Source: Falsiroseomonas oleicola
Lineage (GTDB): Bacteria; Pseudomonadota; Alphaproteobacteria; Acetobacterales; Acetobacteraceae
DNA length: 64,000 bases
Reading direction: 5' to 3'
Assembly: GCF_019029495.1 (NCBI RefSeq)
Contig: NZ_JAERQM010000002.1
Span: forward strand, 558,001 to 622,000
Part shown: in pieces, positions 43,067 through 63,328 of the stretch
Position numbering within the stretch: position 1 is the first letter of the stretch
How the letters are laid out: every line of letters starts with the position of its first letter
The notes under the pieces: generated by a model
Seen by the model: only the letters and a program-made list of their open reading frames with translations
The model's database searches: none
Told to the model about the DNA's origin: nothing
Position numbers and translations under genes: made by a program

Positions 43067-43143
43067 GGACCCGTAGCTCAATTGGATAGAGCACCAGACT
43101 ACGGATCTGGGGGTTAGGAGTTCGAATCTCTTCGGGTCCGCCA
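43067..43143 (+). tRNA. tRNA-Arg (anticodon ACG); probable prophage attachment gene
   Basis: The acceptor GGACCCG pairs with CGGGTCC, the D-arm contains AGCTCAATTGGATAGAGC, the anticodon stem-loop is CCAGA-CTACGGA-TCTGG with ACG, and the T-loop TTCGAAT and encoded CCA follow. It reads CGN Arg codons by inosine. A leftward integrase gene starts the foreign DNA 80 bp downstream, so the 3' half of this tRNA is the likely attachment core; the matching copy should lie beyond the right edge. Confidence 0.97.
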
Positions 43144-43179
43144 GGTTTTCCAATCCCTTAGCGACGGCCGGCTGTCAGC

Positions 43180-43223: not shown

Positions 43224-44435
43224 CTATCGGCGGCGCGGCGCCATGGGGATAACGCTTGGGCCGGGCGCCGCCTCCCACGCATCCATCGCCAGGGCGGCCA
43301 CGTCACGCCGGCGGGGCAGGTAGGTGTCGATGATCGCCTGCGTGTAGTCGATCTTCCAGCCGGCGATGGCGGCGATCTGCGGCACGGTGGCGCCGGCCAG
43401 TGCCATCTGCACTACCCCGGTCCGCCGCAGGTCTCGGCGTTGCAGATCCAGAATCAGCCCGGCGCGGATGATGGCCTTGGCCTTGGCGCGGCCGTCACGG
43501 TTGCGGGGCAGGCCGCCGCGGGCGCGCATCGCCTGCCGCGCCAGGCGCAGGTTCACCCGATCAATCACCCGGTCCCAGGTTCGCGAGAAATTCCGACGGC
43601 TCCAGGGCAGGCCGGTGGGGCTGGGCAGCAGCAGCGTGGATGCTGAGGTGCCCTTCCGGATTCGCGGCGGCGCAGGTTCCGGCCGCAGCATCTCCTCGGC
43701 CAGGACGGCATGGCACGGCACGTCCAGCAGCGCGCCCGTCTTGGCCTGGCGCAGCCGGATCCAGGTGCGCCCCTCCCCAACCCAGACCATCGGCGTGCCC
43801 ATGGCCAGCACATCCGAGAGCCGTTGCACGCTGTACAGCAGCAGCGCCATCGCCTTGCGTACCCGAGGCATGTCCAGCTCGCTGGCGATCTGCAGCACGG
43901 CATCAATGTGATGCTGCGGCCAGACCTGGTCGCGAGGGCGTGTGTCGAACATCTCGAACCCCTCCACCGGGTTCTGCGCCAGTTCCGGCAGTTGCAGCTC
44001 ATCCTTCCCGTAGTTCAGCACCAGGCGGAGGGTGCGGAGGATGGCGTTGCCGCGGAAGGGGCGATCCCGGTAGCCGGCGTGGAACACCGCCACGGCCTTC
44101 CGGGTAATGCCGGCCAGGGGCACAGCTTCCCAGGCCTCGCGCAGGATCTCGATATGGTCGGCATATTCCGCCTTGGTCCTCGGCGCCTTTTTGCCGTAGC
44201 CGGTGCTGCCCAGGTACAGCGCGGCCAGTTCCCCGAAGCTGCCGGTCGGCGGGCGGCGCGGAGCCTCTGGCGCTTCGCGGGCGGTGGACAGGGCCACGGC
44301 CTGGTCGCGCGTCATGCCGTCCCGCTCCCGGCCCAGCAGGGCGCCGGATCGGCGGTGGTAGAAGTCGGTCGTGGTGGTTCCGTCCGCCAGCTTACGCCTG
44401 ACGGCGTTGAGCCCGCTGCTTACCGGCCTGGGCAT
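43224..44435 (-). CDS. int: Phage tyrosine-recombinase integrase
   Basis: A 403-aa recombinase; ATG 44435 is chosen because GGGAG lies 6 nt upstream. An N-terminal arm-binding region and a SAM-like core-binding domain (about 65-150) precede the catalytic domain. The catalytic residues are Arg205 (SVQRLSDVL), Lys232 (RQAKTG), Arg337 (RRDLRRTG), Trp360 (IAGW) and nucleophile Tyr372 (DTYLPRR). The usual His of box II is Arg334 and the second His is Trp360, which is tolerated in some phage integrases. It is the last gene of the leftward operon. Confidence 0.95.
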   Translation of the reverse strand: MPRPVSSGLNAVRRKLADGTTTTDFYHRRSGALLGRERDGMTRDQAVALSTAREAPEAPRRPPTGSFGELAALYLGSTGYGKKAPRTKAEYADHIEILREAWEAVPLAGITRKAVAVFHAGYRDRPFRGNAILRTLRLVLNYGKDELQLPELAQNPVEGFEMFDTRPRDQVWPQHHIDAVLQIASELDMPRVRKAMALLLYSVQRLSDVLAMGTPMVWVGEGRTWIRLRQAKTGALLDVPCHAVLAEEMLRPEPAPPRIRKGTSASTLLLPSPTGLPWSRRNFSRTWDRVIDRVNLRLARQAMRARGGLPRNRDGRAKAKAIIRAGLILDLQRRDLRRTGVVQMALAGATVPQIAAIAGWKIDYTQAIIDTYLPRRRDVAALAMDAWEAAPGPSVIPMAPRRR

Positions 44436-44745
44436 TCTGCGCTCCCGCAATGGCTGCCGCCTCCGCGCCCGCCCGCATCGCGGCCGCGACCTCGGGGGGC
44501 GATGGGCAGAGGCCGGAGGCCTGGTCGGCCGCAGCGTCCAGCGCCCGGCGGTCCCATGTCAACCGCTGGCCCTCGGCGCCGCGAAGCCGGGGCGGCGGCC
44601 ATTCCCCCCGGGCGACCTCGCCCAGGAAGGTGTCGAGCGAGACGCCGAGATAGGCCGCCGCCTCCTCGCGCGACAGATAGCGGGGCTCCATACCCGGCGG
44701 CAGCGCGGCCCTGCGGCCGGCGCCAGGTGTGGCGCGAGCGGTCAT
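44392..44745 (-). CDS. Small HTH protein, excisionase/AlpA-like
   Basis: A 117-aa protein whose middle reads RYLSREEAAAYLGVSLDTFL, then RGEWPPPRLRGAEGQRLTWD, the HTH_17/MerR-like fold of excisionases and AlpA regulators. Its 3' end overlaps the integrase start by about 44 bp and its start overlaps the next gene upstream by ATGA. The position beside int suggests directionality control of excision. Confidence 0.8.
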   Translation of the reverse strand: MTARATPGAGRRAALPPGMEPRYLSREEAAAYLGVSLDTFLGEVARGEWPPPRLRGAEGQRLTWDRRALDAAADQASGLCPSPPEVAAAMRAGAEAAAIAGAQNAQAGKQRAQRRQA

Positions 44746-45430: not shown

Positions 45431-46603
45431 TCACACCCTCATCGGCATGAGGACCGCGATCGCGTCATCCTCCTGGATCAGCGCCGGCGTGTCGCTCGCC
45501 TTGATCTGCGCGCGGAATCCGTTCGGCAGGGCGGCGCAGAGGTCGCGCAGGTAGCGGGCCTGGATGCTAAGGGGCGGCCCGCCCGGCGCCTCCCACACCG
45601 CCACGGTGTCCGACAGGTCGATCGTCGCCTCGCCGGCATCCAGCGAGGCGCCTTGCAGGGTCACGCCCAGGCCGTCCTCGGCCGCGCCGAGCCGCACCGG
45701 CTTGGCCTTGCCCTCGCCCATGATGCTGACCGTGGTGATGTGCTTGGCGAGCGTCCCCGGGGCGGGCACATGCAGCACGGTGCCGCCCGGCGCGGGAATC
45801 ACCCGGTCGTATTCCGGGAACTGGCCGTCGATCAGCTTGCTGTCCATCTGCCAGTCCCGGCCGGCGACCGACAGCAGGTTGTCGGTGGCGGTCACCTCCA
45901 CCGCGGCGCCGGTCGCCTCGCCCTCCAGCAGCGCCGCCAGGGCGCCGCAGGTGGCGCGGGGCACGATCATGCCGGGCATGTCCGCCGGCGCCGCTGCCGA
46001 GGCGCGGGCATCCGCCAGCGCCACGAACAGGCGGTGCCCATCGGTGGCGCTGCCTGCCAGGATTCGGGTGGCGCCATCCTGCCGCAGGTGCAGATAGATG
46101 CCGTTGAGGTAGTAGCGGGCGGTCTCCGTGGAGATCGCATGCGCCGGCCGGGTCAGCAGGCGGCGCAGCTCGGCGGCGTCCACCTCCCAGGCCTTGCCGC
46201 GCTTGCGGGTGACGCTCGGGAAGTCCTCCACCGGCAGGGTCATCAGCCGCGCGCGGAGGCTGCCGATGCGCAGAATGAGCGCGTCGCCATCGCAGTCCAT
46301 CGTCAGTGTCGCCGTCTCGGCCGAGTCCGCCGACGCCACCAGTCCCATCAGGCGCTCGGCATTGACGGTGGCCGGCGACAGGTCGCCGTCGGCATCGGTG
46401 GAGGCGGTGACGTGGATCTCCATGTCCGTGCCGGTCACGGTCAGCCGGCCGCCGGTCGCGGCGATCAGCACGTTGGCGAGGATGGGCACGGTGGCCTTGC
46501 GCTCCGCGCCCTGGTTGGCGGCGGCCAGCACGGCGCGGAGATCTTCGGCGGTCAGTTGCACTTCGCCACCGGGCTCGGCGGCGGGCTTGCGGCGGGCGGT
46601 CAT
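45431..46603 (-). CDS. Phage-encoded DNA polymerase III beta subunit (sliding clamp)
   Basis: A 390-aa DnaN homologue. The three-domain clamp is recognisable: [20 protein letters not shown] at the N-terminus with [17 protein letters not shown], then [18 protein letters not shown] in domain 2 with [14 protein letters not shown], then the [11 protein letters not shown] segment, and the C-terminal AVLMPMRV, matching the MPMR end of bacterial clamps. It encircles DNA to tether polymerase. It is not the chromosomal dnaN: it lies within the prophage leftward operon and overlaps the ParB-like gene by ATGA. It probably supports phage replication. Confidence 0.93.
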
Positions 46604-48834
46604 GGTGCGATCCTTCGGCCTTCGCGCATGCGCTTGCGGGCCTCCGCGTTGTCCAGGCGGCGACGGGCGGCCTTGCCGATGGGAGTGGTCACCCAGGTGG
46701 CGTATTTGGCGTGGCGGTCGCACAGCTTGTGGCAGACGGTCGTGCCCTCATCCCGGCAGATCGTCTCGCCGTCCCAGCCGCAGGTGACCGGGTCGCGTGG
46801 CGCGTCGAACACGGTGGCGTCGGCGGCGCGCTGGGCCTCGTGCTGCTGGCGCGTCGCGCGCGCGGCGTCGTCCACGATCCAGCGGTCGTAGGCGGCGCGG
46901 CGGTCGCAGGCGTGCTGGCAGTGATCCTCGGCGCGGGCGGGGCAGGGGCTGGCGCCATCCCAGGGGCAGGCGCGCGGGGCCTCGGGCGGTGGCGCGGGCG
47001 GCGGCTCAGGCGCGCGGGCCAGGCCTAGCCGGCGCATCTGGGCCTGCCAGGTGGCCAGCGCGCAGTCCTCGGCCGTGTCGCCGTCGCTGGTCCTCCAGCC
47101 GCAATGGCAGCGGTCGGCGCCGGCGGCGCGGTCGCAGGGCGCGGGCTCGGGCTCCAGCTCCGGCAGGGGCGCGCCGAAGGCGGTCTCGGCCAGGTGCATG
47201 TTCGGGGTGTTGCCGGTCAGGGCGGCGCGCATGGTGCCGACCTTGCCGGGCTTGATCTCGGCGGCCTGGGCCAGCTCGCGCAGCGTGTCGGCGGAGAGGG
47301 TGGCCAGCAGGTCCGCGCGATCGAGGCGCGGCATCACGGCGCCGGCGCCGACCAGCATGCCGATCCATTCCGCGGCGGGGCCGCTGCCATTGCCAGCCTT
47401 GGTCTGGTCGCAGATCAGGATGCGGGCGACGGCCTCCCGCGCGATGTGGTCGAGCATCTCGCGATGACGGCGCGCGTCGGGCTCGGCGAAGGCGGCGAAG
47501 GTGGCGGCGGCGATATCCTCGAAATCCGTGCGGCCGTATTTGTTGCCACGCTCGCCGTGGACGGTCAGGTTGCGGGCGGACAGGGCCAGCAGCAGCAGGG
47601 CGAGGGCGGGCGTGGCGGGCGCCGGGCGGTCGCGGAGCGCGGCGCGCAGGGCATCGGTGCGCAGCTCCGCCAGCAGTTGGCGGCCCGCCTCGGTCAGGCG
47701 CGGCTTGGGTGCGGGCGGCGGCGGCGGTTCGTCGGCCTCGCCGGCGTCGGCATCATCATCATCATCATGGTCATCGCCGCGCCCGGCGTCGGGCTCCGGC
47801 GTGTCCTCGGCCGGCGGTGTGTCGTGGCCGGCGGGCAGGGGCGCCTTGACCCTTGTCGCGGGGCGTTCGGTGGCGGGGGCGCGGGCGGCCTCGGACCGGA
47901 CATCGCCGTTCGCGTCGACCCACACGAAACCCGTGATGCCCCGTGGCATCTTCGCATCGCCGAAGGTCCAGCCGCCGGTGTGCTGCCAGCCCTTGGGCAG
48001 CTTCGCGTCGCCGTGCTTGTCGACGGTCGCAATCTGCAACCGGCCGCGCGAATCCTCCACGCGCTTGGCCAGGGCGGCGCGCTGCGCCTCCATGAAGCCC
48101 TCGATGTCCGTGGTGGCGAATTGGGCGGGCGTGCCGGGCTCGGCGAACAGATCCTCCTCGAACACCACGCCGGCGAGGTCCGTGTCGAAGATCGCGCGCT
48201 CGCGGAAGATGCGCCGCTGGCTGCAGGCGTGGGCGATGAAGTGCCAGGCGGGCTCATGGCCCTCCGGCGTCTTGGCCATGGCGGCGGCCTGCACGTCGAG
48301 CGGGGCCATGGCCATGATGGCCAGGTAGTCGGCGTGCGGCATGCCATGCGCCTCGATGGCGGCCAGCACGGTGGGGTGCAGCCGGGACAGTTTGTCGAGG
48401 CGCCTGGCCAGGCGTTGCGACAGGCCCAGGGCCTCGGCGGCCATGTCCAGCGTCCAGCCGAGATCCTGCAACTGCCGGATCGCGCGCCACTGGTCGACGG
48501 GCGCGAGGGCGGCGCGCTGGATGTTCGCGGCGGCCTCGATCGCGGTGGCGTCGGCATCCGTCAGGTCGGCGCGCTCGACGGCGGCGATGGTCTCCAGCTC
48601 GGCGGCCTTGGCGGCGGCAAGGCGGCGGCGCCCGTCGACCAGCAGCCACAGCGCGGCGTCGGCGGGATGCGGGCGCACGATGATGGGCACCAGCAGGCCG
48701 AGCGCCTGGACGGTGGACAGCAGGTTGGCGTCCTGCTGCGCCGTCGCGCGCACCCGGCGCAGCCCATCCTCCGGCACCACGATGGAGGCGAGGGGGATGG
48801 TGAGGGCGAGGCCGCTGTTGGGGCGGGCGGTCAT
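46600..48834 (-). CDS. ParB-like protein with Asp-rich linker and Cys-rich C-terminal repeats
   Basis: A 744-aa protein. Residues about 1-200 form a ParB/Srx nuclease-like domain plus HTH: IPLASIVVPEDGLRRV, LWLLVDGRRRLAAAKAAELE (GxRR box), ADLTDADATAIEAAANIQRA and LDMAAEALGLSQRLARRLDK. A central domain follows, then an acidic linker around residue 330 (GRGDDHDDDDDADAG) and a helical region. The C-terminus holds two copies of a C-x7-C-x7-C-x3-C module (from Cys623 and Cys685, period 62) and a degenerate third (from about 567). The Cys modules probably bind zinc. ATG 48834 gives the conserved start. Confidence 0.85.
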   Translation of the reverse strand: MTARPNSGLALTIPLASIVVPEDGLRRVRATAQQDANLLSTVQALGLLVPIIVRPHPADAALWLLVDGRRRLAAAKAAELETIAAVERADLTDADATAIEAAANIQRAALAPVDQWRAIRQLQDLGWTLDMAAEALGLSQRLARRLDKLSRLHPTVLAAIEAHGMPHADYLAIMAMAPLDVQAAAMAKTPEGHEPAWHFIAHACSQRRIFRERAIFDTDLAGVVFEEDLFAEPGTPAQFATTDIEGFMEAQRAALAKRVEDSRGRLQIATVDKHGDAKLPKGWQHTGGWTFGDAKMPRGITGFVWVDANGDVRSEAARAPATERPATRVKAPLPAGHDTPPAEDTPEPDAGRGDDHDDDDDADAGEADEPPPPPAPKPRLTEAGRQLLAELRTDALRAALRDRPAPATPALALLLLALSARNLTVHGERGNKYGRTDFEDIAAATFAAFAEPDARRHREMLDHIAREAVARILICDQTKAGNGSGPAAEWIGMLVGAGAVMPRLDRADLLATLSADTLRELAQAAEIKPGKVGTMRAALTGNTPNMHLAETAFGAPLPELEPEPAPCDRAAGADRCHCGWRTSDGDTAEDCALATWQAQMRRLGLARAPEPPPAPPPEAPRACPWDGASPCPARAEDHCQHACDRRAAYDRWIVDDAARATRQQHEAQRAADATVFDAPRDPVTCGWDGETICRDEGTTVCHKLCDRHAKYATWVTTPIGKAARRRLDNAEARKRMREGRRIAP

Positions 48835-49470: not shown

Positions 49471-49901
49471 CAGGCGCGCGCCTTGTCGCGGTCGGCGCTG
49501 GCGAGGTCGTCGCGTAGGATGGCGGCGACGGTCACGGCGCGATCCGGCGGCCAGCCGAAATACTCGGCGAGGTAGCTGGCGTCGGTGCTGGGCCTGCGCA
49601 GCAGAACGCGCGCCTCCGCGATATCCTGCGGCCACAGGCCGTCCAGCGCCGGGTCCTGCGGCAGGTCCTTGGCGGCGCGCGGGCCGCGCGGGCGATGGCG
49701 CCGGTTGGGCAGGCGGAGGCGGCGCGCGGCCTGCCAGCGGAGCGCGTCGGGTGCCGGAACATCCGGGCCGGGCAGGGCGGACAGGCGCTGGCGGATTTCG
49801 GGCACGGTCAGGTCCTTGGCGGGCCAGAGGGTGCGCAGCAGCGCCGCGCGCTCCGGCGTCAGCCAATCGGGCTGCTGGGCGGCGGGGCGGGCGCGGGTCA
49901 T
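49470..49901 (-). CDS. GcrA/SANT-like phage DNA-binding protein (short paralogue)
   Basis: A 143-aa protein. Residues about 12-68 resemble the SANT/GcrA-type domain (DWLTPERAALLRTLWPAKDL, then WQAARRLRLPNR). Residues 93-143 are a module ending FGWPPDRAVTVAAILRDDLA and SADRDKARA. The module is 55 percent identical (28 of 51) to one in the next gene upstream, so the two arose by tandem duplication. ATG 49901 overlaps the upstream stop by ATGA. Probably a phage transcription factor. Confidence 0.75.
   Translation of the reverse strand: MTRARPAAQQPDWLTPERAALLRTLWPAKDLTVPEIRQRLSALPGPDVPAPDALRWQAARRLRLPNRRHRPRGPRAAKDLPQDPALDGLWPQDIAEARVLLRRPSTDASYLAEYFGWPPDRAVTVAAILRDDLASADRDKARA
49478..49504. repeat. 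27-bp direct repeat, copy 1
   Basis: 27 identical bases shared with 50119-50145. Both lie in the sequence coding for the ASADRDKA end of the shared module of the two GcrA-like paralogues, and are the best-preserved trace of the duplication. Confidence 0.85.
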
Positions 49902-51118
49902 GCGGCACCTGCCGTGCGCGCCAACAGGCGCCACTCGGCGATCCAGGTGCTGACGGTGGCCAGCGGGATGCCGAAGTCCGCGGCAATGTCGCGGGCGGTG
50001 CCGCCGCCCGCGAACATCGCGCGGGCCTCCGCCTTGTCCGGGTGCTCGGCCGGCAGGTCGGCGCGTCGCCCGGTGCCATGGCGGCCGTGCTCGGGGCGCG
50101 CTGGCGGCGCGGCGGCAGGCGCCTTGTCGCGGTCGGCGCTGGCGATTTCGTCGAGCAGCTCGGCGGCGATCCGCTTGGCATCCGGCGGCGCCCAGCCAAA
50201 CCACTGGGCGAGCTTTTCGTGGTCGCAACTGGAATTCCGCATCATCTCCCGCGCCTCCGCGACGTCCTTCGGCAGGATGGCCGGCGGCGGGGCCTCGGCC
50301 TTCGGCGGCTTCGGGGCAGGGCTGGGCCTGGCGGTGCCGGGCGCCTTGCTGACCGGTTCCGGCCTGGCGCGCGCGGGCGGCGGCGTCGCGGGGCGGCGCA
50401 GCCCCATCTTGGCCGCCTGGATGCCGGCCCGCTTCGCGGTGACGGTCGGGCCGGGCTCCGCATTGATGGCGGCCGTGATGTCCTGGATGGGGTCGCCGGC
50501 CGGGTAGCGCGCCGTCAGGATGGCGCGGCGCGCCTCGGTCCAGGTGGTGCCGGTGCGGCGCGGGCTATCCATTGGCGCAGGCCGCGGCTTGGGGGGGGCA
50601 CTGCCCCGGCCGGCGGGGCTTCCACCCGCTGCGCCCCGGCCGTGGGGGGAGGGTTCGGCGGGCGGGCTCTGCCCGATTCCGCCCTCGGCCGTGCAAGCGG
50701 CGTGGGCGGTTTCCGCCTCGGGCGGCGGGCTCTCCGCCGCCGGGGCCGGGGCGGCCGGCGGGGCGGAGGGCAGGGTGGTGTGGTCGGCGGCGGCCAGGTC
50801 GGCGGCCATCTGAGCGCCGGTGATGTTGAGGGCGTTGGCCAGGATGCTCGCGGCCGATGGCCCTGCCTCGGCCGGCAGGACGACGCAGGTGGCGTCGTGC
50901 ATGTCCGTCGGGCCGAGGGCCGCCGGGGCGGGCGGCGGCGGGGCGCTGGCGACAAAAAGGGCGCGCATCGTCGCGAGCGAGGGCGCGGGATCGGCGGGCA
51001 GGGTCTCCGCGATCAGCTCGGCGCCGATCAGCGCGGCGCCGAGGTAGTGGCGGGCGGCGTCGGGCGCGCCGTCATACAGGCGGCGGAGGGTGGCCAGCCG
51101 GTGGGTGGCGGGGGTCAT
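49898..51118 (-). CDS. GcrA/SANT-like phage DNA-binding protein (long paralogue)
   Basis: A 406-aa protein. Residues 1-130 are helical (LATLRRLYDGAPDAARHYLG), then a Pro/Ala-rich linker. A SANT/GcrA-like domain follows (GTTWTEARRAILTARYPAGD, AKMGLRRP), then a second Pro-rich linker and the module shared with the short paralogue (DVAEAREMMRNSS, LAQWFGWAPPDAKRIAAELL). The protein ends with an HTH (GTARDIAADFGIPLATVSTW). With two putative DNA-binding parts it is a likely regulator. ATG 51118. Confidence 0.75.
   Translation of the reverse strand: MTPATHRLATLRRLYDGAPDAARHYLGAALIGAELIAETLPADPAPSLATMRALFVASAPPPPAPAALGPTDMHDATCVVLPAEAGPSAASILANALNITGAQMAADLAAADHTTLPSAPPAAPAPAAESPPPEAETAHAACTAEGGIGQSPPAEPSPHGRGAAGGSPAGRGSAPPKPRPAPMDSPRRTGTTWTEARRAILTARYPAGDPIQDITAAINAEPGPTVTAKRAGIQAAKMGLRRPATPPPARARPEPVSKAPGTARPSPAPKPPKAEAPPPAILPKDVAEAREMMRNSSCDHEKLAQWFGWAPPDAKRIAAELLDEIASADRDKAPAAAPPARPEHGRHGTGRRADLPAEHPDKAEARAMFAGGGTARDIAADFGIPLATVSTWIAEWRLLARTAGAA
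50119..50145. repeat. 27-bp direct repeat, copy 2
   Basis: Identical to 49478-49504; lies inside the long GcrA-like gene. Confidence 0.85.
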
Positions 51119-51768
51119 GGCGTCATGCCTTGGACGATGATGCCTACGCCGAGCGCGACCTCGATGGCTGCCGCGCCCAGCAGGATCAGCGCGGCGAGGG
51201 CCAGATCCCGCGCGGTGCGGGCAGGTCGCGGGCCAGCAGGCGGGCGGTGGCCTGGGCGGGATAGGGGGCATCGGCCACCTGTGGCGCGAGGCGCTGGCAG
51301 GTCTCCGCCACCTGCCGAAGCTGCTGCGCCAGCGTCTGGCCCCAGGCGCGGGACGGGCGATGTTCCGGCGGCAGGGCTGCCGCCAATTGCTCGATCGCCT
51401 CCGCCGAGATCAGCAGGGCGTCGGCATGGTAGGGCGGTGGGACCTGCGGCAGGTGGTGCAGCAGCATGGTCAGCCGGGCCAGGGTGCGGGTGAGGTCGGG
51501 CATGGCTGGTTACTCCGGCCGGCAAAGCGGCGATGCGGGTCAGGGCCTCGGCGGCCATCTGGCCGATGCGGGCCAGGGTCTGATCCGCCTGTTCGGCGGT
51601 GCAGAGCTGGATGGCGACGGTGCGGGCGTAGGCCACGCCGGCCGCGTAGCGGTGCTGGCTGACCTGGAGGGGCGTGGTGGTGCGATCCAGGTCAGCCTGG
51701 ATGCTCTCCTCCAGTTGCCAGTTCCAATCGAGGCATTCCGGCGGAGGGGCAAAGGTGAAGCGGGTCAT
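51115..51768 (-). CDS. Phage protein, frame continues through another gene (possible frameshift)
   Basis: The first about 90 codons (MTRFTFAPPPECLDWNWQLE, HRYAAGVAYARTVAIQLCTA) look like a real gene, coupled by ATGA to the MazG-like gene. From about 51500 leftward the frame turns His/Pro/Gly-rich and overlaps the better frame 51186-51503. It then ends with a convincing membrane helix (ALILLGAAAIEVALGVGIIV) and an ATGA overlap with the next gene. The tail may belong to a separate small membrane gene, or a frameshift has merged the two. Confidence 0.5.
   Translation of the reverse strand: MTRFTFAPPPECLDWNWQLEESIQADLDRTTTPLQVSQHRYAAGVAYARTVAIQLCTAEQADQTLARIGQMAAEALTRIAALPAGVTSHARPHPHPGPADHAAAPPAAGPTALPCRRPADLGGGDRAIGGSPAAGTSPVPRLGPDAGAAASAGGGDLPAPRATGGRCPLSRPGHRPPAGPRPARTARDLALAALILLGAAAIEVALGVGIIVQGMTP
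51186..51503 (-). CDS. Phage protein of unknown function
   Basis: A 105-aa protein with good coding character: MPDLTRTLARLTMLLHHLPQ, LLISAEAIEQLAAALPPEHR, LAQQLRQVAETCQRLAPQVA. It lies wholly inside a longer frame (51115-51768), but its own amino-acid pattern is the more natural of the two over this stretch. No family recognised. Confidence 0.6.
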   Translation of the reverse strand: MPDLTRTLARLTMLLHHLPQVPPPYHADALLISAEAIEQLAAALPPEHRPSRAWGQTLAQQLRQVAETCQRLAPQVADAPYPAQATARLLARDLPAPRGIWPSPR

Positions 51769-55512: not shown

Positions 55513-56174
55513 TCGGCGATCCGGAGGGCGTGTTTCGGCATTGGCAGCGCGGCTCCGCGCCCTGGCTGCGTGATCGGCTTGGTCCGACGTGGTGGCGGTT
55601 CCGGGATGTGCTTGCGTTGGCGCCTGTTCGGGCGGTCGGTGCGTATCATTTCGAGGTGCTGCCCGCAGGCGCGGCGGAGGCGCGAAATGTGCGGCCTATC
55701 GTTGCGGTCCGGGCGGGCATTCCTGATCGCTGGATGGTGGTCGGCGACGACGGCTTCGGGATCGCCTACCCCGCCGAGTTTGCCGACCCAGTCAGCGGGC
55801 TCCCACGCGATCACGAAGAGATCGACCTTTGCTGCCTGCTGTCGGGGGCGGAGGTTGTGGACCTGCTGGCCTGCGATTTCCGCCTTTCCAGGCCGCCCCG
55901 TGCCTTGACGGGCATGGCCTCCGCGCTCGGCGATCCGCATGGGGAGGTGGCGATGCGGGCGACCGAATCCGCGCCGCTGCGCGTCGCCGCCAGCGTGGCG
56001 GATGTGCTGTTCGGTGGGCGGGTCGCGGTGCTGCCGCTGGGCGATGATGCGGCGCGCGCGGCCTATCTGCGCGGGGCGGCGGCGGTGACGGCGCCGGACC
56101 TGGCCTCGGCGCGGGCGATGAAGAAACTGCTGGAGGTGCCTGTGGCGATGCCAAAGCTGTTCGTCGCGGCATGA
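55509..56174 (+). CDS. Phage protein of unknown function upstream of the replication ATPase
   Basis: A 221-aa protein of mixed alpha/beta character (YHFEVLPAGAAEARNVRPIV, then GRVAVLPLGDDAARAAYLRG near the C-terminus, followed by a helix-rich end). It may correspond to a primase-like or Toprim-related part split from the ATPase, but no catalytic motif is clear to me. Coupled by ATGA on both sides. Confidence 0.65.
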   Translation: MIGDPEGVFRHWQRGSAPWLRDRLGPTWWRFRDVLALAPVRAVGAYHFEVLPAGAAEARNVRPIVAVRAGIPDRWMVVGDDGFGIAYPAEFADPVSGLPRDHEEIDLCCLLSGAEVVDLLACDFRLSRPPRALTGMASALGDPHGEVAMRATESAPLRVAASVADVLFGGRVAVLPLGDDAARAAYLRGAAAVTAPDLASARAMKKLLEVPVAMPKLFVAA

Positions 56175-58018
56175 CCTCCTCCGAAAAAATCGTGCCCTTC
56201 GGGGAGATGGAGCGCGCCGCGAAGAAGGAACGCCGCAAGCGCGCGCGGGAAGCTGACGACGCGCCGGAGGATGGCGGCGACGGCGGCGAGGGCGGGCGGA
56301 TCGTCGTCGATTGGGATGGCTGCCCCGTCACCTGTATCGGGCACGGCAAGGGGGTGTATTTCTTCCTCGATTCCTCGGGGCAGTTCCGGGAGCTGCGCTC
56401 GCGCGATCTGTTCGGCAAGCCGGAGCTGCTGGCGATGTTCGGCGGCGATGACCGCTGGCTGAAGAAGCATTTCTTCGCGCTGGGGGATGATGGCCGGAAG
56501 CGGGTTTCGGTGAGTGGTGCGGCGCAGGCGCTGCAACGGCGCTGCCATGTGATGGGCGTCTTCGATCCCGAGGTGGTGGAGATTCGTCAGCCCGGCATCT
56601 GGGCGGATGAGGCGGGGCGGCCGGTGGCGCATCTCGGCGATGTGCTGGCGATGCCGGATGGGTCGCTGGTCGATGCCGGCGGACGGCATGACGGCGTGAT
56701 CTATGAGCGGCGCGGTGCGGCGCCCCGGCCGGCGCGGCCCTGCGCGGCGGCGGAGATCGCGCATCTGTTGGAGCGGATCCAGGACATCTGGCTTTTTCGA
56801 GACGGGCCGGCGGGGGCGATGCTGGTGCTCGGCCATGTCGCGATGGCGCTGCTGGGTGCGGCGGCGGAGTGGCGCGCGAACCTGTTCCTGCTGGGTGATT
56901 CGGGCTCGGGCAAATCCGAGTTGATGGCGCTGATGCGCGCCTTGCAGATCGTGCATGTCTACAGCAACGACACCTCCCGCGCCGGGCTTGTCGCGCGCAT
57001 CACGATGCGGCCGGGGCCGATCCATGTCGAAGAGGCGGTGCAGGGTGACAAGGGTGGCGCGAAGGAGCTGCTGAACCTGATGCTGCCGGCGACGGGCGGC
57101 AAGGGATCGGAGGGGTATCGCGCGCGGGCCGATGGCACGGGGCGTGGCTTCCGGGTGCTCGGCGCGGTGTGTTTCGCCGCGATCCATCCGCCGCCGATGC
57201 AGGTGGAACACCGCAACCGCTTCACCGAAATCAACCTGATGCCGCCGCGCGACGGGCAGAGCGCGAAGGAGTCGATCTCCGAATTGCGCAGCCATGCGCG
57301 CAAGCTGGCGCCGGCCCTGTTCGGGCGCGTGCTGGCGGGCTTTCCGCGCTGGGTGGCGACGCTGGCGACGCTGCGCGGGGCGCTGCTGCGGCATGGATGC
57401 TCGCCACGGGATTCGGACCAGCTCGGCTCGCTGCTGGCGGGGTGGTGGATTTTGTCGTCGGACGCGCTGCCCTCGGAGGCGGAGGCGAAGGGGCTGGTGG
57501 CGATGTGCGCGGCCTACATTCCCGAGCAGGCGATGGTGCGGGAGGAATCGGCGGCGCGGCGCGCCTGGCTGGCGCTGGCCACCACCTCCGTCACGCTGCG
57601 ATCCGGCACGCAAAGGCGGCAGATCGGGGAGCTGGTGCGGGATGCGCTGCGCGAGGATATCGGGCTGGCCTCGGCGGCGGAGACTGAGTTGCGACAATGG
57701 GGGATGCGAACGGACAGCCTCTCGCCGGAGGATGCGGTTCGGCTGCTGCGGGACATCGATGACACGCAGGTCCGCAAATGGCCGCTGGTCGGGGTGTGGT
57801 TCGGGCGCAAGCATTCGGAGTTGCAGCGGCTGTTCGACAAGACGGCGAGCCCTGGGGAGGCCTGGTGGCGGGCGATGCAGTCGCAGCCGGGGGCGTGGCG
57901 CGGGCTGAAGAATATCCGGATCGGGGATGTGGCGAGCGGGGCTTTCTTCGTGTCCCGCGATGCGCTGGGCGGGCTGCCCCCCGCGCCCCCGGAAGGGGAG
58001 GCGCCTCCGGTTTTGTGA
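56171..58018 (+). CDS. Phage replication ATPase/helicase (DUF927/D5-like)
   Basis: A 615-aa protein. The N-terminal third is a mixed domain (GKGVYFFLDSSGQFRELRSR); the P-loop ATPase domain is central: Walker A LLGDSGSGKSELM at about 240, Walker B-like GPIHVEEAVQG and an Arg-rich sensor region (FTEINLMPPRDGQSAKE). The C-terminal part is helical. This matches D5/DUF927-type phage helicase-loader or replicative ATPases. It sits directly upstream of an iteron array with an AT-rich stretch, the usual neighbour of a replication initiator. Confidence 0.8.
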   Translation: MTSSEKIVPFGEMERAAKKERRKRAREADDAPEDGGDGGEGGRIVVDWDGCPVTCIGHGKGVYFFLDSSGQFRELRSRDLFGKPELLAMFGGDDRWLKKHFFALGDDGRKRVSVSGAAQALQRRCHVMGVFDPEVVEIRQPGIWADEAGRPVAHLGDVLAMPDGSLVDAGGRHDGVIYERRGAAPRPARPCAAAEIAHLLERIQDIWLFRDGPAGAMLVLGHVAMALLGAAAEWRANLFLLGDSGSGKSELMALMRALQIVHVYSNDTSRAGLVARITMRPGPIHVEEAVQGDKGGAKELLNLMLPATGGKGSEGYRARADGTGRGFRVLGAVCFAAIHPPPMQVEHRNRFTEINLMPPRDGQSAKESISELRSHARKLAPALFGRVLAGFPRWVATLATLRGALLRHGCSPRDSDQLGSLLAGWWILSSDALPSEAEAKGLVAMCAAYIPEQAMVREESAARRAWLALATTSVTLRSGTQRRQIGELVRDALREDIGLASAAETELRQWGMRTDSLSPEDAVRLLRDIDDTQVRKWPLVGVWFGRKHSELQRLFDKTASPGEAWWRAMQSQPGAWRGLKNIRIGDVASGAFFVSRDALGGLPPAPPEGEAPPVL

Positions 58019-61849: not shown

Positions 61850-63328
61850 ATGCCGGTCCTGGAACGCCTGATCGAATGGTTCAGCCCCGCCGCGGCGCAT
61901 GAGCGGGCGGTGCACCGCGCGCAGCTGGCGCAGATTCGCGGCTACGCGGCCGGGGAATCGGGGCGGCTGACGCAGGACTGGCAGCCCACGGGGCTGTCGC
62001 CCAACCAGGTCTTGCAGGCCGGCGCGCCGCTGATGCTGCGCCGGGTGCGGGACCTGGGGCGCAACAATGCCTGGGCCGCCGCCGCCCTGCGCCGCCTGCC
62101 TGCCGCCATCGTCGGCACGCAGGTGACGGCCAGCGTGGCCGAGAAGGGCAAGCGGGTGCGCCAGGCGGTGGCGGATGACTGGTCGTGGTTCCGCGAACAG
62201 GGCAATGCCAGCGGTGCCCGCGCGGCCAACTGGGATGCCGAGGTCGCGCGCATGGTGCGCACCATCGTGGAGACGGGCGATTGCCTGGTGGTGTGGAACT
62301 TCCGCCCCTCCGCCGAGAATCGCCGCATCCCGCTGACCTGGCGGGCGCTGCCGCCGGATTACATCGATGCGCTGCGCATCCAGCCGCAGGGCCGCGACAA
62401 CACGGTGATCGGCGGGGCGGAGGTCGACCCGGACGGGGTGACGGTGGGCTGGTGGCTGTATGACCGGCATCCGCTGGACACCATCAACGCCCGCCTGCCG
62501 CAAAGCCGGTTCTACCCGGCCGATCAGGTGGACCTGCTGCACGAAGCGCTGTGGCTGGGCCAGCGGCGCGGCGTGCCCTGGTTGTCGCCGGTGGCCGTCG
62601 ATATCGATGACATGGCCCAGAACGACAAGGCCGCCATCTGGAAGGCCCGCATGGCGTCCAGCCTCGCTTTGGTGCGCACCCGCGCGGGTGTGGCCGGGAC
62701 GCCGCTTGGTGCGCCCGGCAAGGATACGAAAGGGCGGGACACGTTGCAGCTTTCGCCGGCGGCGGTGCTGGACGTTGCGCCGGGCGAGACCGTTTCTCAG
62801 ATCACGCCGCCGCCCGACGAGAACTTCCGGATGTTCTGGGACACGCGGATATTCGCCATCGCGGCGGGTATCGGCCTGCCGGCGCACATGATTTCGGGTG
62901 ACCTTTCCAAGGCCAACTACAGCAGCCTGCGCGAGGGCAAGCTGTTGTTCTGGGACCTGGTCGACCAGTGGCAGTGGCACATGGTCTACGACCAGTTGCT
63001 GCGCGGCGCCTGGCGCCGGTTCGGGGAGGCACGCTTCGCGGCGGGCCGGACCACGGGCGGCATCGCGCCGGCCGTCGAATGGGCCTTCCCGAAGCGCCCC
63101 TGGGTGGACCCGAAAAAGGACATCGAGGCGGTGGAAGCCGAACTCGACCTGGGCCTGACCACCTGGCCCGATGCGGTCGCCGCGCGCGGCATGGATCCGG
63201 AAGATCAGGCGGCGCGGATCGAGGAATGGAACGAAAGGCTGGTGGGCCTGGGCATGCCGGTGGGGCGTGGCCGGGTGCAGCGGCCGAAATCCACGACCGG
63301 GACGGCGCAGCCGGAAGGTGGCGCGTGA
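61850..63328 (+). CDS. Phage portal protein, lambda family
   Basis: A 492-aa portal forming the dodecameric DNA channel. Lambda-family stretches: RVRDLGRNNAWAAAALRRLP, VRTIVETGDCLVVWNFRPS, GRDNTVIGGAEVDPDGVTVG, LWLGQRRGVPWLSPVAVDID and AHMISGDLSKANYSSLREGK. ATG 61850 begins 3 bp after gpW. Confidence 0.94.
   Translation: MPVLERLIEWFSPAAAHERAVHRAQLAQIRGYAAGESGRLTQDWQPTGLSPNQVLQAGAPLMLRRVRDLGRNNAWAAAALRRLPAAIVGTQVTASVAEKGKRVRQAVADDWSWFREQGNASGARAANWDAEVARMVRTIVETGDCLVVWNFRPSAENRRIPLTWRALPPDYIDALRIQPQGRDNTVIGGAEVDPDGVTVGWWLYDRHPLDTINARLPQSRFYPADQVDLLHEALWLGQRRGVPWLSPVAVDIDDMAQNDKAAIWKARMASSLALVRTRAGVAGTPLGAPGKDTKGRDTLQLSPAAVLDVAPGETVSQITPPPDENFRMFWDTRIFAIAAGIGLPAHMISGDLSKANYSSLREGKLLFWDLVDQWQWHMVYDQLLRGAWRRFGEARFAAGRTTGGIAPAVEWAFPKRPWVDPKKDIEAVEAELDLGLTTWPDAVAARGMDPEDQAARIEEWNERLVGLGMPVGRGRVQRPKSTTGTAQPEGGA

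What the first reader, a model, noticed from the sequence alone, without database searches (positions are those of the whole stretch)
46600..48834. ParB-like protein with duplicated C-x7-C-x7-C-x3-C modules and an Asp-run linker
The ParB/HTH domain is fused to a long C-terminus containing two Cys-rich modules with identical spacing (period 62 residues) and a degenerate third copy. I know of no ParB-family member with such a tail. It is translationally coupled to the clamp gene, hinting at a phage replication or partition complex rather than classical ParABS (no parA is present).
Basis: partly seen in the sequence, partly recalled or inferred. Interest (0 to 1): 0.8.

Follow-up and report, generated by a model that had tools for sequence, protein, structure and literature searches.

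The report
Phage ParB with metal-finger tail
A temperate phage sitting in this bacterial genome encodes a DNA-binding ParB-like protein whose end carries three clusters of four cysteines that probably hold metal ions; this tail is a rare, apparently new add-on to a known protein family, and its job is not yet known.

Summary
The 744-aa protein (window 46600-48834, minus strand) has a ParB fold and two C-x7-C-x7-C-x3-C modules 62 residues apart. The "degenerate third copy" is a distinct module (C-x8-C-x1-C-x12-C) with its own conservation.

All 12 tail cysteines are kept in a Falsiroseomonas selenitidurans prophage homologue (58% tail identity). Synechococcus phage MinM1 keeps one module of each kind.

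The gene lies in a complete-looking 40.8-kb prophage in tRNA-Arg. Its ~560-residue body belongs to an orphan-ParB group of plasmids and phages near NCBIfam NF010406. Of 62 distinct complete C-termini that I collected, 55 have no Cys4 module and 7 have one; 3 of those 7 carry a third, different Cys4 finger at the same place. The 7 all come from phages or prophage-like regions. Pfam, PHROGs and PDB sequences gave no convincing match to the tail.

The clamp interpretation is not supported: no clamp gene was found in the other three Cys-tailed elements searched. No parA is present.

Best reading: a nucleotide-gated phage DNA clamp or regulator with appended metal-stabilised fingers that add DNA or partner contacts. 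It is a new variant of a known kind; metal binding and function are inferred.

The parts
46600..48834 (-). parB-like gene, 744 aa (P0001)
   Evidence: ParB_N Pfam, PHROG ParB-like families, TIGR00180 above cut-off, Foldseek to ParB/KorB/Noc
48517..48738 (-). ParB_N (ParB-CTPase fold), residues 33-106; Box I GLLVP 46-50, Box II GRRR 68-71, Box III ANIQR 103-107
   Evidence: boxes compared with PDB ParBs and counted over 45 members
48346..48501 (-). HTH / middle helical DNA-binding region, residues about 112-163
   Evidence: AlphaFold2 helices with pLDDT about 90; homology to ParB middle domain in PDB alignments
47710..47862 (-). low-confidence acidic linker with Asp run, residues about 325-375
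47200..47694 (-). second folded all-helical domain, residues about 381-545, ending before the FGAPxP motif; residues about 505-540 resemble a SAP motif (weak lead)
   Evidence: SAP E 0.015 in one homologue, below cut-off; no SAP hit listed for the 25 members of A4
47062..47136 (-). Cys module A: C567, C576, C578, C591
   Evidence: conserved in F. selenitidurans, MinM1 and G047
46906..46968 (-). Cys module B1: C623, C631, C639, C643
   Evidence: conserved in F. selenitidurans
46720..46782 (-). Cys module B2: C685, C693, C701, C705, followed by a basic helical end
   Evidence: conserved in F. selenitidurans and (C-x7-C-x7-C-x2-C) MinM1
45431..46603 (-). DNA polymerase III beta-clamp gene, ATG overlaps the parB stop (ATGA)
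   Evidence: phrog_947 E 5.1e-56, Pfam DNA_pol3_beta domains, overlap
43098..43148 (.). attL: 51-bp exact repeat with 83929-83979 (beyond the window; contig C12 641929-641979), overlapping the 3' part of tRNA-Arg 43067-43143
43224..44450 (-). tyrosine integrase
   Evidence: phrog_1 E 4.6e-20
56171..58018 (+). primase-helicase-like gene of the same phage lineage
   Evidence: phrog_21086, phrog_35358; 62% identity to MinM1 over 551 aa
59564..61618 (+). terminase large subunit
   Evidence: phrog_15 E 8.6e-173
61850..63328 (+). portal protein
   Evidence: phrog_21 E 3.1e-65

Best explanation
It is an orphan (parA-less) ParB-fold protein of a temperate phage. The N-terminal ParB-CTPase fold plus HTH binds phage DNA and probably closes as a nucleotide-bound clamp; a second helical domain after a flexible acidic linker sits where canonical ParBs have their dimerisation domain. 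In this phage group the protein has been extended by two kinds of Cys4 module (A and a duplicated B) that most likely each bind one structural zinc ion and add DNA or partner contacts, so the protein works as an early-region DNA clamp/regulator or DNA organiser rather than as a segregation protein. Shown: fold, homology, module conservation, phage context, absence of parA in the prophage. Inferred: nucleotide binding, clamp closure, metal binding, what the fingers touch, biological role.
For: ParB_N and TIGR00180 above their cut-offs. AlphaFold2 model of the body, 324 residues with pLDDT 90 or more, matches C. crescentus ParB, RK2 KorB and Noc (best E 9.6e-9; 31 chains with E up to 0.001). Nucleotide-box residues G46, G68, R71, N104 and R107 are invariant in 45 of 45 members. 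All 12 tail Cys kept in F. selenitidurans against 95 of 173 other aligned tail residues; module A plus one B in MinM1; A alone in G047. Cys4 tails of a third type (C-x2-C-x5-C-x5-C) occur at the same place in three further members. Count over 62 distinct complete C-termini: ABB 2, AB 1, A 1, C 3, none 55. The seven come from: the window prophage, the F. selenitidurans contig sharing terminase, portal and primase, phage MinM1, the G047 contig with terminase, connector and repressor genes, G799 and G807 near a primase of the lineage (the G799 protein's tail also appears in an IMG/VR contig, L267), and an IMG/VR contig. No PF13614 parA in the prophage.
Against: No metal, nucleotide or DNA binding was measured. 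The window protein lacks both glutamates needed for CTP hydrolysis in B. subtilis ParB (Arg69 in GxRR, Ala103 in xNxxR), although RK2 KorB hydrolyses CTP with GARR. Nucleotide identity cannot be read from sequence (PMC12704722 section 9). Tail models are poor: mean pLDDT 61 alone and 40-84 per ten-residue block in the full model, so no finger geometry is shown. No parS-like repeated palindrome was found. 55 of 62 relatives do without such a tail, so it is not needed for the core function.
Confidence: 0.55

Rival explanations
1. Replication-complex reading of the first reader: ParB and the phage sliding clamp act as one complex, with the Cys tail as the contact.
For: ATGA overlap with the clamp gene; clamp not far downstream of a ParB-like gene in Gordonia phage BBQValindra; a primase gene in the same prophage.
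Against: No clamp found in three other elements with Cys-tailed ParBs; none seen next to parB in 25 IMG/VR loci at the sensitivity of blastp E 1e-8; the Gordonia ParB has no Cys tail; the next gene in F. selenitidurans is DUF5131; the parB start overlaps its upstream ORF equally.
Confidence: 0.08
2. Partition protein: the phage has a plasmid-like stage and this is its ParB, working with an unrecognised or host ParA.
For: Body related to NF010406 'plasmid partitioning protein' (25 of 25 members of A4 match) and to plasmid proteins of Agrobacterium and Rhizobium (446 records).
Against: No PF13614 ParA in the prophage; integrase and 51-bp att repeat show it integrates in tRNA-Arg; no clustered parS-like palindrome; NF010406 cut-off not reached by the window protein (246 against 640 bits).
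Confidence: 0.12
3. The Cys modules ligate an iron-sulphur cluster (redox or DNA-damage sensor on the clamp) instead of zinc.
For: Four-Cys sets of three spacings; spacing alone does not tell zinc from iron-sulphur (general knowledge, no call).
Against: Conserved polar and Trp/Gly-rich surroundings (C-x-CGW; C-x-W-x-G) look like small structural zinc sites (judgement, no call); no redox partner seen.
Confidence: 0.12
4. Anti-restriction or host-takeover protein: the clamp coats incoming or replicating phage DNA, and the changing Cys fingers follow an arms race.
For: Three different finger types at one position among close relatives; PMC12704722 suggests anti-defence roles for prophage ParB fusions (passages).
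Against: No defence-related neighbour was tested or seen; padloc was not searched.
Confidence: 0.1

Closest known systems
NF010406 / PRK13832 'plasmid partitioning protein' (alphaproteobacterial plasmids)
   Same: Same long body: residues 23-341 in the best stretch, E 7e-73; plasmid homologue in Rhizobium.
   Different: 246 bits against a cut-off of 640; none of the plasmid/ICE-like members that I looked at has a Cys4 tail; phage instead of plasmid context.
RK2 KorB and BisD of ICEclc (ParB-fold clamps that regulate genes; BisD known to me only from listings and a reference title)
   Same: ParB fold plus HTH, no dedicated partition role, non-GERR phosphate motif as in KorB (GARR); Foldseek hit to KorB.
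   Different: Body extends to about 560 residues with a second helical domain; Cys4 tail; target sites unknown.
ParB-CTPase fold fusion proteins of the survey PMC12704722 (abstract, outline, passages and section 9 seen)
   Same: Orphan ParB fold of mobile elements fused to lineage-specific domains.
   Different: The word zinc occurs there only in the reference list; the fused domains named in the passages seen (DUF3850, DUF4417, methyltransferases, HNH and others) do not include this tail.
Gordonia phage ParB-like proteins (for example BBQValindra gp50)
   Same: Phage ParB-like, 497 aa, clamp gene nearby.
   Different: Similar only over about residues 3-169 of MinM1's protein; no Cys in the C-terminal part but one.

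Membership tests
ParB-CTPase fold (PF02195 ParB_N) | profile score above the curated cut-off | tested here: met
   30.6 bits against 26.3
ParB-CTPase fold (PF02195 ParB_N) | GxxR phosphate motif and C-motif loop | tested here: met
   G68, R71 invariant in 45 of 45; GLLVP loop
ParB-CTPase fold (PF02195 ParB_N) | binds a nucleotide | not testable with these tools
   needs DRaCALA or ITC
ParB/RepB/Spo0J (TIGR00180) | score above cut-off | tested here: met
   65.9 bits against 58.45
canonical ParABS ParB | parA beside it | tested here: not met
   12 PF13614 matches in the genome, none in the prophage
canonical ParABS ParB | catalytic Glu in GERR and ENxxR | tested here: not met
   GRRR and ANIQR in the window protein; E in 4 of 45 and 37 of 45 members at the two places
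canonical ParABS ParB | parS sites | tested here: inconclusive
   only GC-rich palindromes without a clear cluster
NF010406 / PRK13832 | score above the subfamily cut-off | tested here: not met
   246.1 against 640 bits; treated as a relative, not a member
known zinc-finger or ribbon families | profile or sequence match of the Cys tail | tested here: not met
   tail alone: Pfam only PF13400 at E 0.022, below cut-off, PHROGs only phrog_18965 at E 0.025; PDB by A5 profile no hit up to E 10, module A one chance-level hit E 0.93
zinc-binding module | bound metal | not testable with these tools
   needs ICP-MS or a structure

The most novel reading that the evidence does not exclude
One phage ParB clamp family has an interchangeable C-terminal docking site at which different small Cys4 metal fingers (A, A+B, A+B+B, C-type) have been added more than once, turning a generic nucleotide-gated DNA clamp into phage-specific devices; the fingers define what the sliding clamp recruits or bridges.
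Probability: 0.3. Interest if true: 0.65.

Novelty: new variant of a known kind. Interest (0 to 1): 0.45.

Why it matters
Nucleotide-gated ParB clamps are now known to work beyond DNA segregation, but what their added domains do is mostly open. A natural series of one phage clamp with no finger, one, two or three Cys4 fingers, and with fingers of different kinds at one position, makes the question of how such clamps gain new partners directly testable by swapping or removing tails in laboratory strains. It also shows that gene overlap (parB-clamp) is a poor guide to function here.

Tried and rejected
Clamp partnership: rejected as a conserved feature. Full-length protein patterns in viral contigs and genome contigs: no relatives for the window protein; alignment A1 and module B profile in viral contigs: none; P0003 gave one distant ParB (L072). 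Module B profile in 385 class genomes and 397 family genomes: 11 and 26 genomes with E up to 0.01, but apart from G000 and G195 the best was E 2.9e-4 and the 34 or so weak loci were not examined one by one. Module A profile in 200 family genomes: 13 genomes, only G000, G195 and G047 strong; the next (G086, E 3.8e-5) lies in an ABC-transporter gene and is chance. Module A DNA pattern in viral contigs: 45 stretches; none of the frames matched the ParB profile at E up to 10 and most were under 100 codons; the four frames over 150 codons were not followed. H26 (fecal phage, E 0.09): not supported by an ORF of that kind. Distant blastn of the tail in phages: none. Tail in plasmids by tblastn: none. 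Tail structure search in BFVD: no match with E up to 0.001. Palindromes for parS: nothing convincing. SAP motif: weak, not supported in the A4 scan. Rows dropped: L013, L015, L017 and L026 left out of A4 (partial, interrupted or without a start codon); L190 left out of the tree because its record holds only the C-terminal half; four of the 45-row tree's placements (L029, L013, L010 long branches) are unsure. The 62 C-termini are not a random sample: queries included Cys-tailed members, some rows are near-identical, and the count needs a stop codon and profile end at 520 or more. Papers: searches; I found no paper on this tail or on MinM1 in that open-access library, which lacks most subscription journals; PMC8494293 and PMC11790492 seen as passages only, PMC12409273 not held.
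Full report
What is there. The minus-strand gene at 46600-48834 encodes 744 residues. Its N-terminus is a ParB_N domain above the Pfam cut-off and TIGR00180 above cut-off. The tail has 12 of the protein's 14 cysteines, in three groups of four. Two groups share the exact spacing C-x7-C-x7-C-x3-C at a distance of 62 residues; 0 of 200,000 shuffles of the tail gave two such modules and 381 gave at least one. The profile of the second finds the first. The third group, nearest the body, is not a degenerate copy: it reads C-x3-AG-x3-C-x-CGW followed by a fourth Cys and is invariant at C, A, G, C, C, G, W, C in four proteins.

Where it is. A 51-bp exact repeat at 43098-43148, over the 3' part of tRNA-Arg, recurs at window-scale position 83929 (contig C12 641929), giving an element of 40.8 kb. 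Between them lie an integrase, an excisionase-like HTH gene, the clamp, the parB gene, repressor-like and CII-like genes, a primase-helicase-like gene, terminase, portal, head protease and endolysin genes. Tail genes were not identified by PHROGs among those tested.

Relatives. A search of 200 family genomes found the long body in a few tens of elements. The F. selenitidurans protein keeps 12 of 12 tail Cys against 95 of 173 other aligned tail positions. Synechococcus phage MinM1 has module A and one B module with C-x7-C-x7-C-x2-C. The G047 protein has module A alone. The three first elements are one phage group: terminase 62% (F. selenitidurans) and 75% (MinM1) identical, portal, head protease and primase-helicase also shared. 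The primase finds 34 IMG/VR loci and 30 of 299 genomes of the order. Scanning the neighbourhoods gave more ParBs, three with a different Cys4 tail, PFPCxGCxxxxxCxxxxxC, at the place where the others begin module A. A last viral scan gave 25 loci, 22 with a complete C-terminus; one of them (L267) has the G799 tail, the rest have no Cys4 module and many end with an FGAPxP-like motif and a short acidic tail. In all, 62 distinct complete C-termini: ABB 2, AB 1, A 1, C 3, none 55. Among the 55, L030 has four and L280 and L281 three scattered Cys in the last 110 residues, without a module. On a body tree of 45 rows with the tail left out, window, F. selenitidurans, MinM1, the two C-type proteins and one Cys-free protein form a supported group of six (98/98); G047 sits elsewhere on a long, unsure branch; Cys-tail presence needs at least 3 changes.

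Nucleotide site. G46, G68, R71, N104 and R107 are invariant in 45 of 45. Glu at the GERR place is present in 4 of 45 and at the ENxxR place in 37 of 45; the window protein lacks both. In B. subtilis ParB both Glu are needed for hydrolysis but not for binding or closure (PMC8494293, passages); KorB hydrolyses CTP with GARR (PMC11790492, passages). So binding is likely, hydrolysis open. The survey PMC12704722 states that the bound nucleotide cannot be predicted from sequence (section 9).

Structure. The full model has mean pLDDT 78.6 and pTM 0.45; the body is well folded, the linker and tail are not. The tail alone reaches 61.1. Foldseek places the body with ParB, KorB and Noc and, over longer stretches, with ParB proteins of uncultured phages. 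No fold is claimed for the fingers.

The clamp. parB and the clamp overlap by ATGA, but so do parB and its upstream ORF. The prophage clamp is 39% identical to what is presumably the host's own. Neither the clamp protein nor the profile phrog_947 finds a clamp in the F. selenitidurans parB contig, MinM1 or the G047 parB contig; all of MinM1's annotation was read without one. The profile found the annotated clamp of Gordonia phage BBQValindra only weakly (E 4.8e-4) and the protein search missed it, so a very divergent clamp could be missed. F. selenitidurans has a DUF5131 gene next to parB, MinM1 has one four genes on, and 2 of 25 viral loci have one.

Reading. The core is a known kind: an orphan ParB-fold protein of mobile elements. 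What is new is the tail: Cys4 modules of at least three spacings at one place, only in phage-borne members among those seen, without a match in Pfam, PHROGs or PDB sequences above chance. I hold structural zinc fingers that add DNA or partner contacts to a nucleotide-gated clamp as most likely. Whether the clamp regulates transcription, organises replicating DNA or counters a host system is not decided here.

Noticed in passing
L183:4987-6879, L184:3758-5722, L190:1507-2511: A third Cys4 finger type (C-x2-C-x5-C-x5-C after GHVGPFP) at the same C-terminal place in related phage ParBs.
   Followed up: partly
L004/L102/L291 (ON981384.1, Synechococcus phage MinM1): Its terminase is about 72-75% identical to this alphaproteobacterial prophage's, so the host label Synechococcus deserves a check.
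   Followed up: no
45431-46603: The prophage carries its own beta clamp, 39% identical to the other clamp of the genome (contig C23); relatives of this phage seem not to have one.
   Followed up: partly
L073:12332-13405: DUF5131 (Gp37/Gp68) gene directly after the Cys-tailed parB in F. selenitidurans; the family is also near parB in MinM1 and in 2 of 25 IMG/VR loci.
   Followed up: partly
L091:2510-5498: Gordonia phage BBQValindra has a ParB-like gene three genes before an annotated sliding clamp.
   Followed up: partly
L072:9215-11350: A distant viral ParB-like protein of 712 codons with a cluster of Cys near residues 493-524, not examined.
   Followed up: no
49473-50228 and 49898-51271: Upstream ORFs whose conserved C-terminal stretch (FGWxxDxAxxIAAxLxDExASADRDKA-like) is shared by both and by a MinM1 gene near parB; function unknown.
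   Followed up: no
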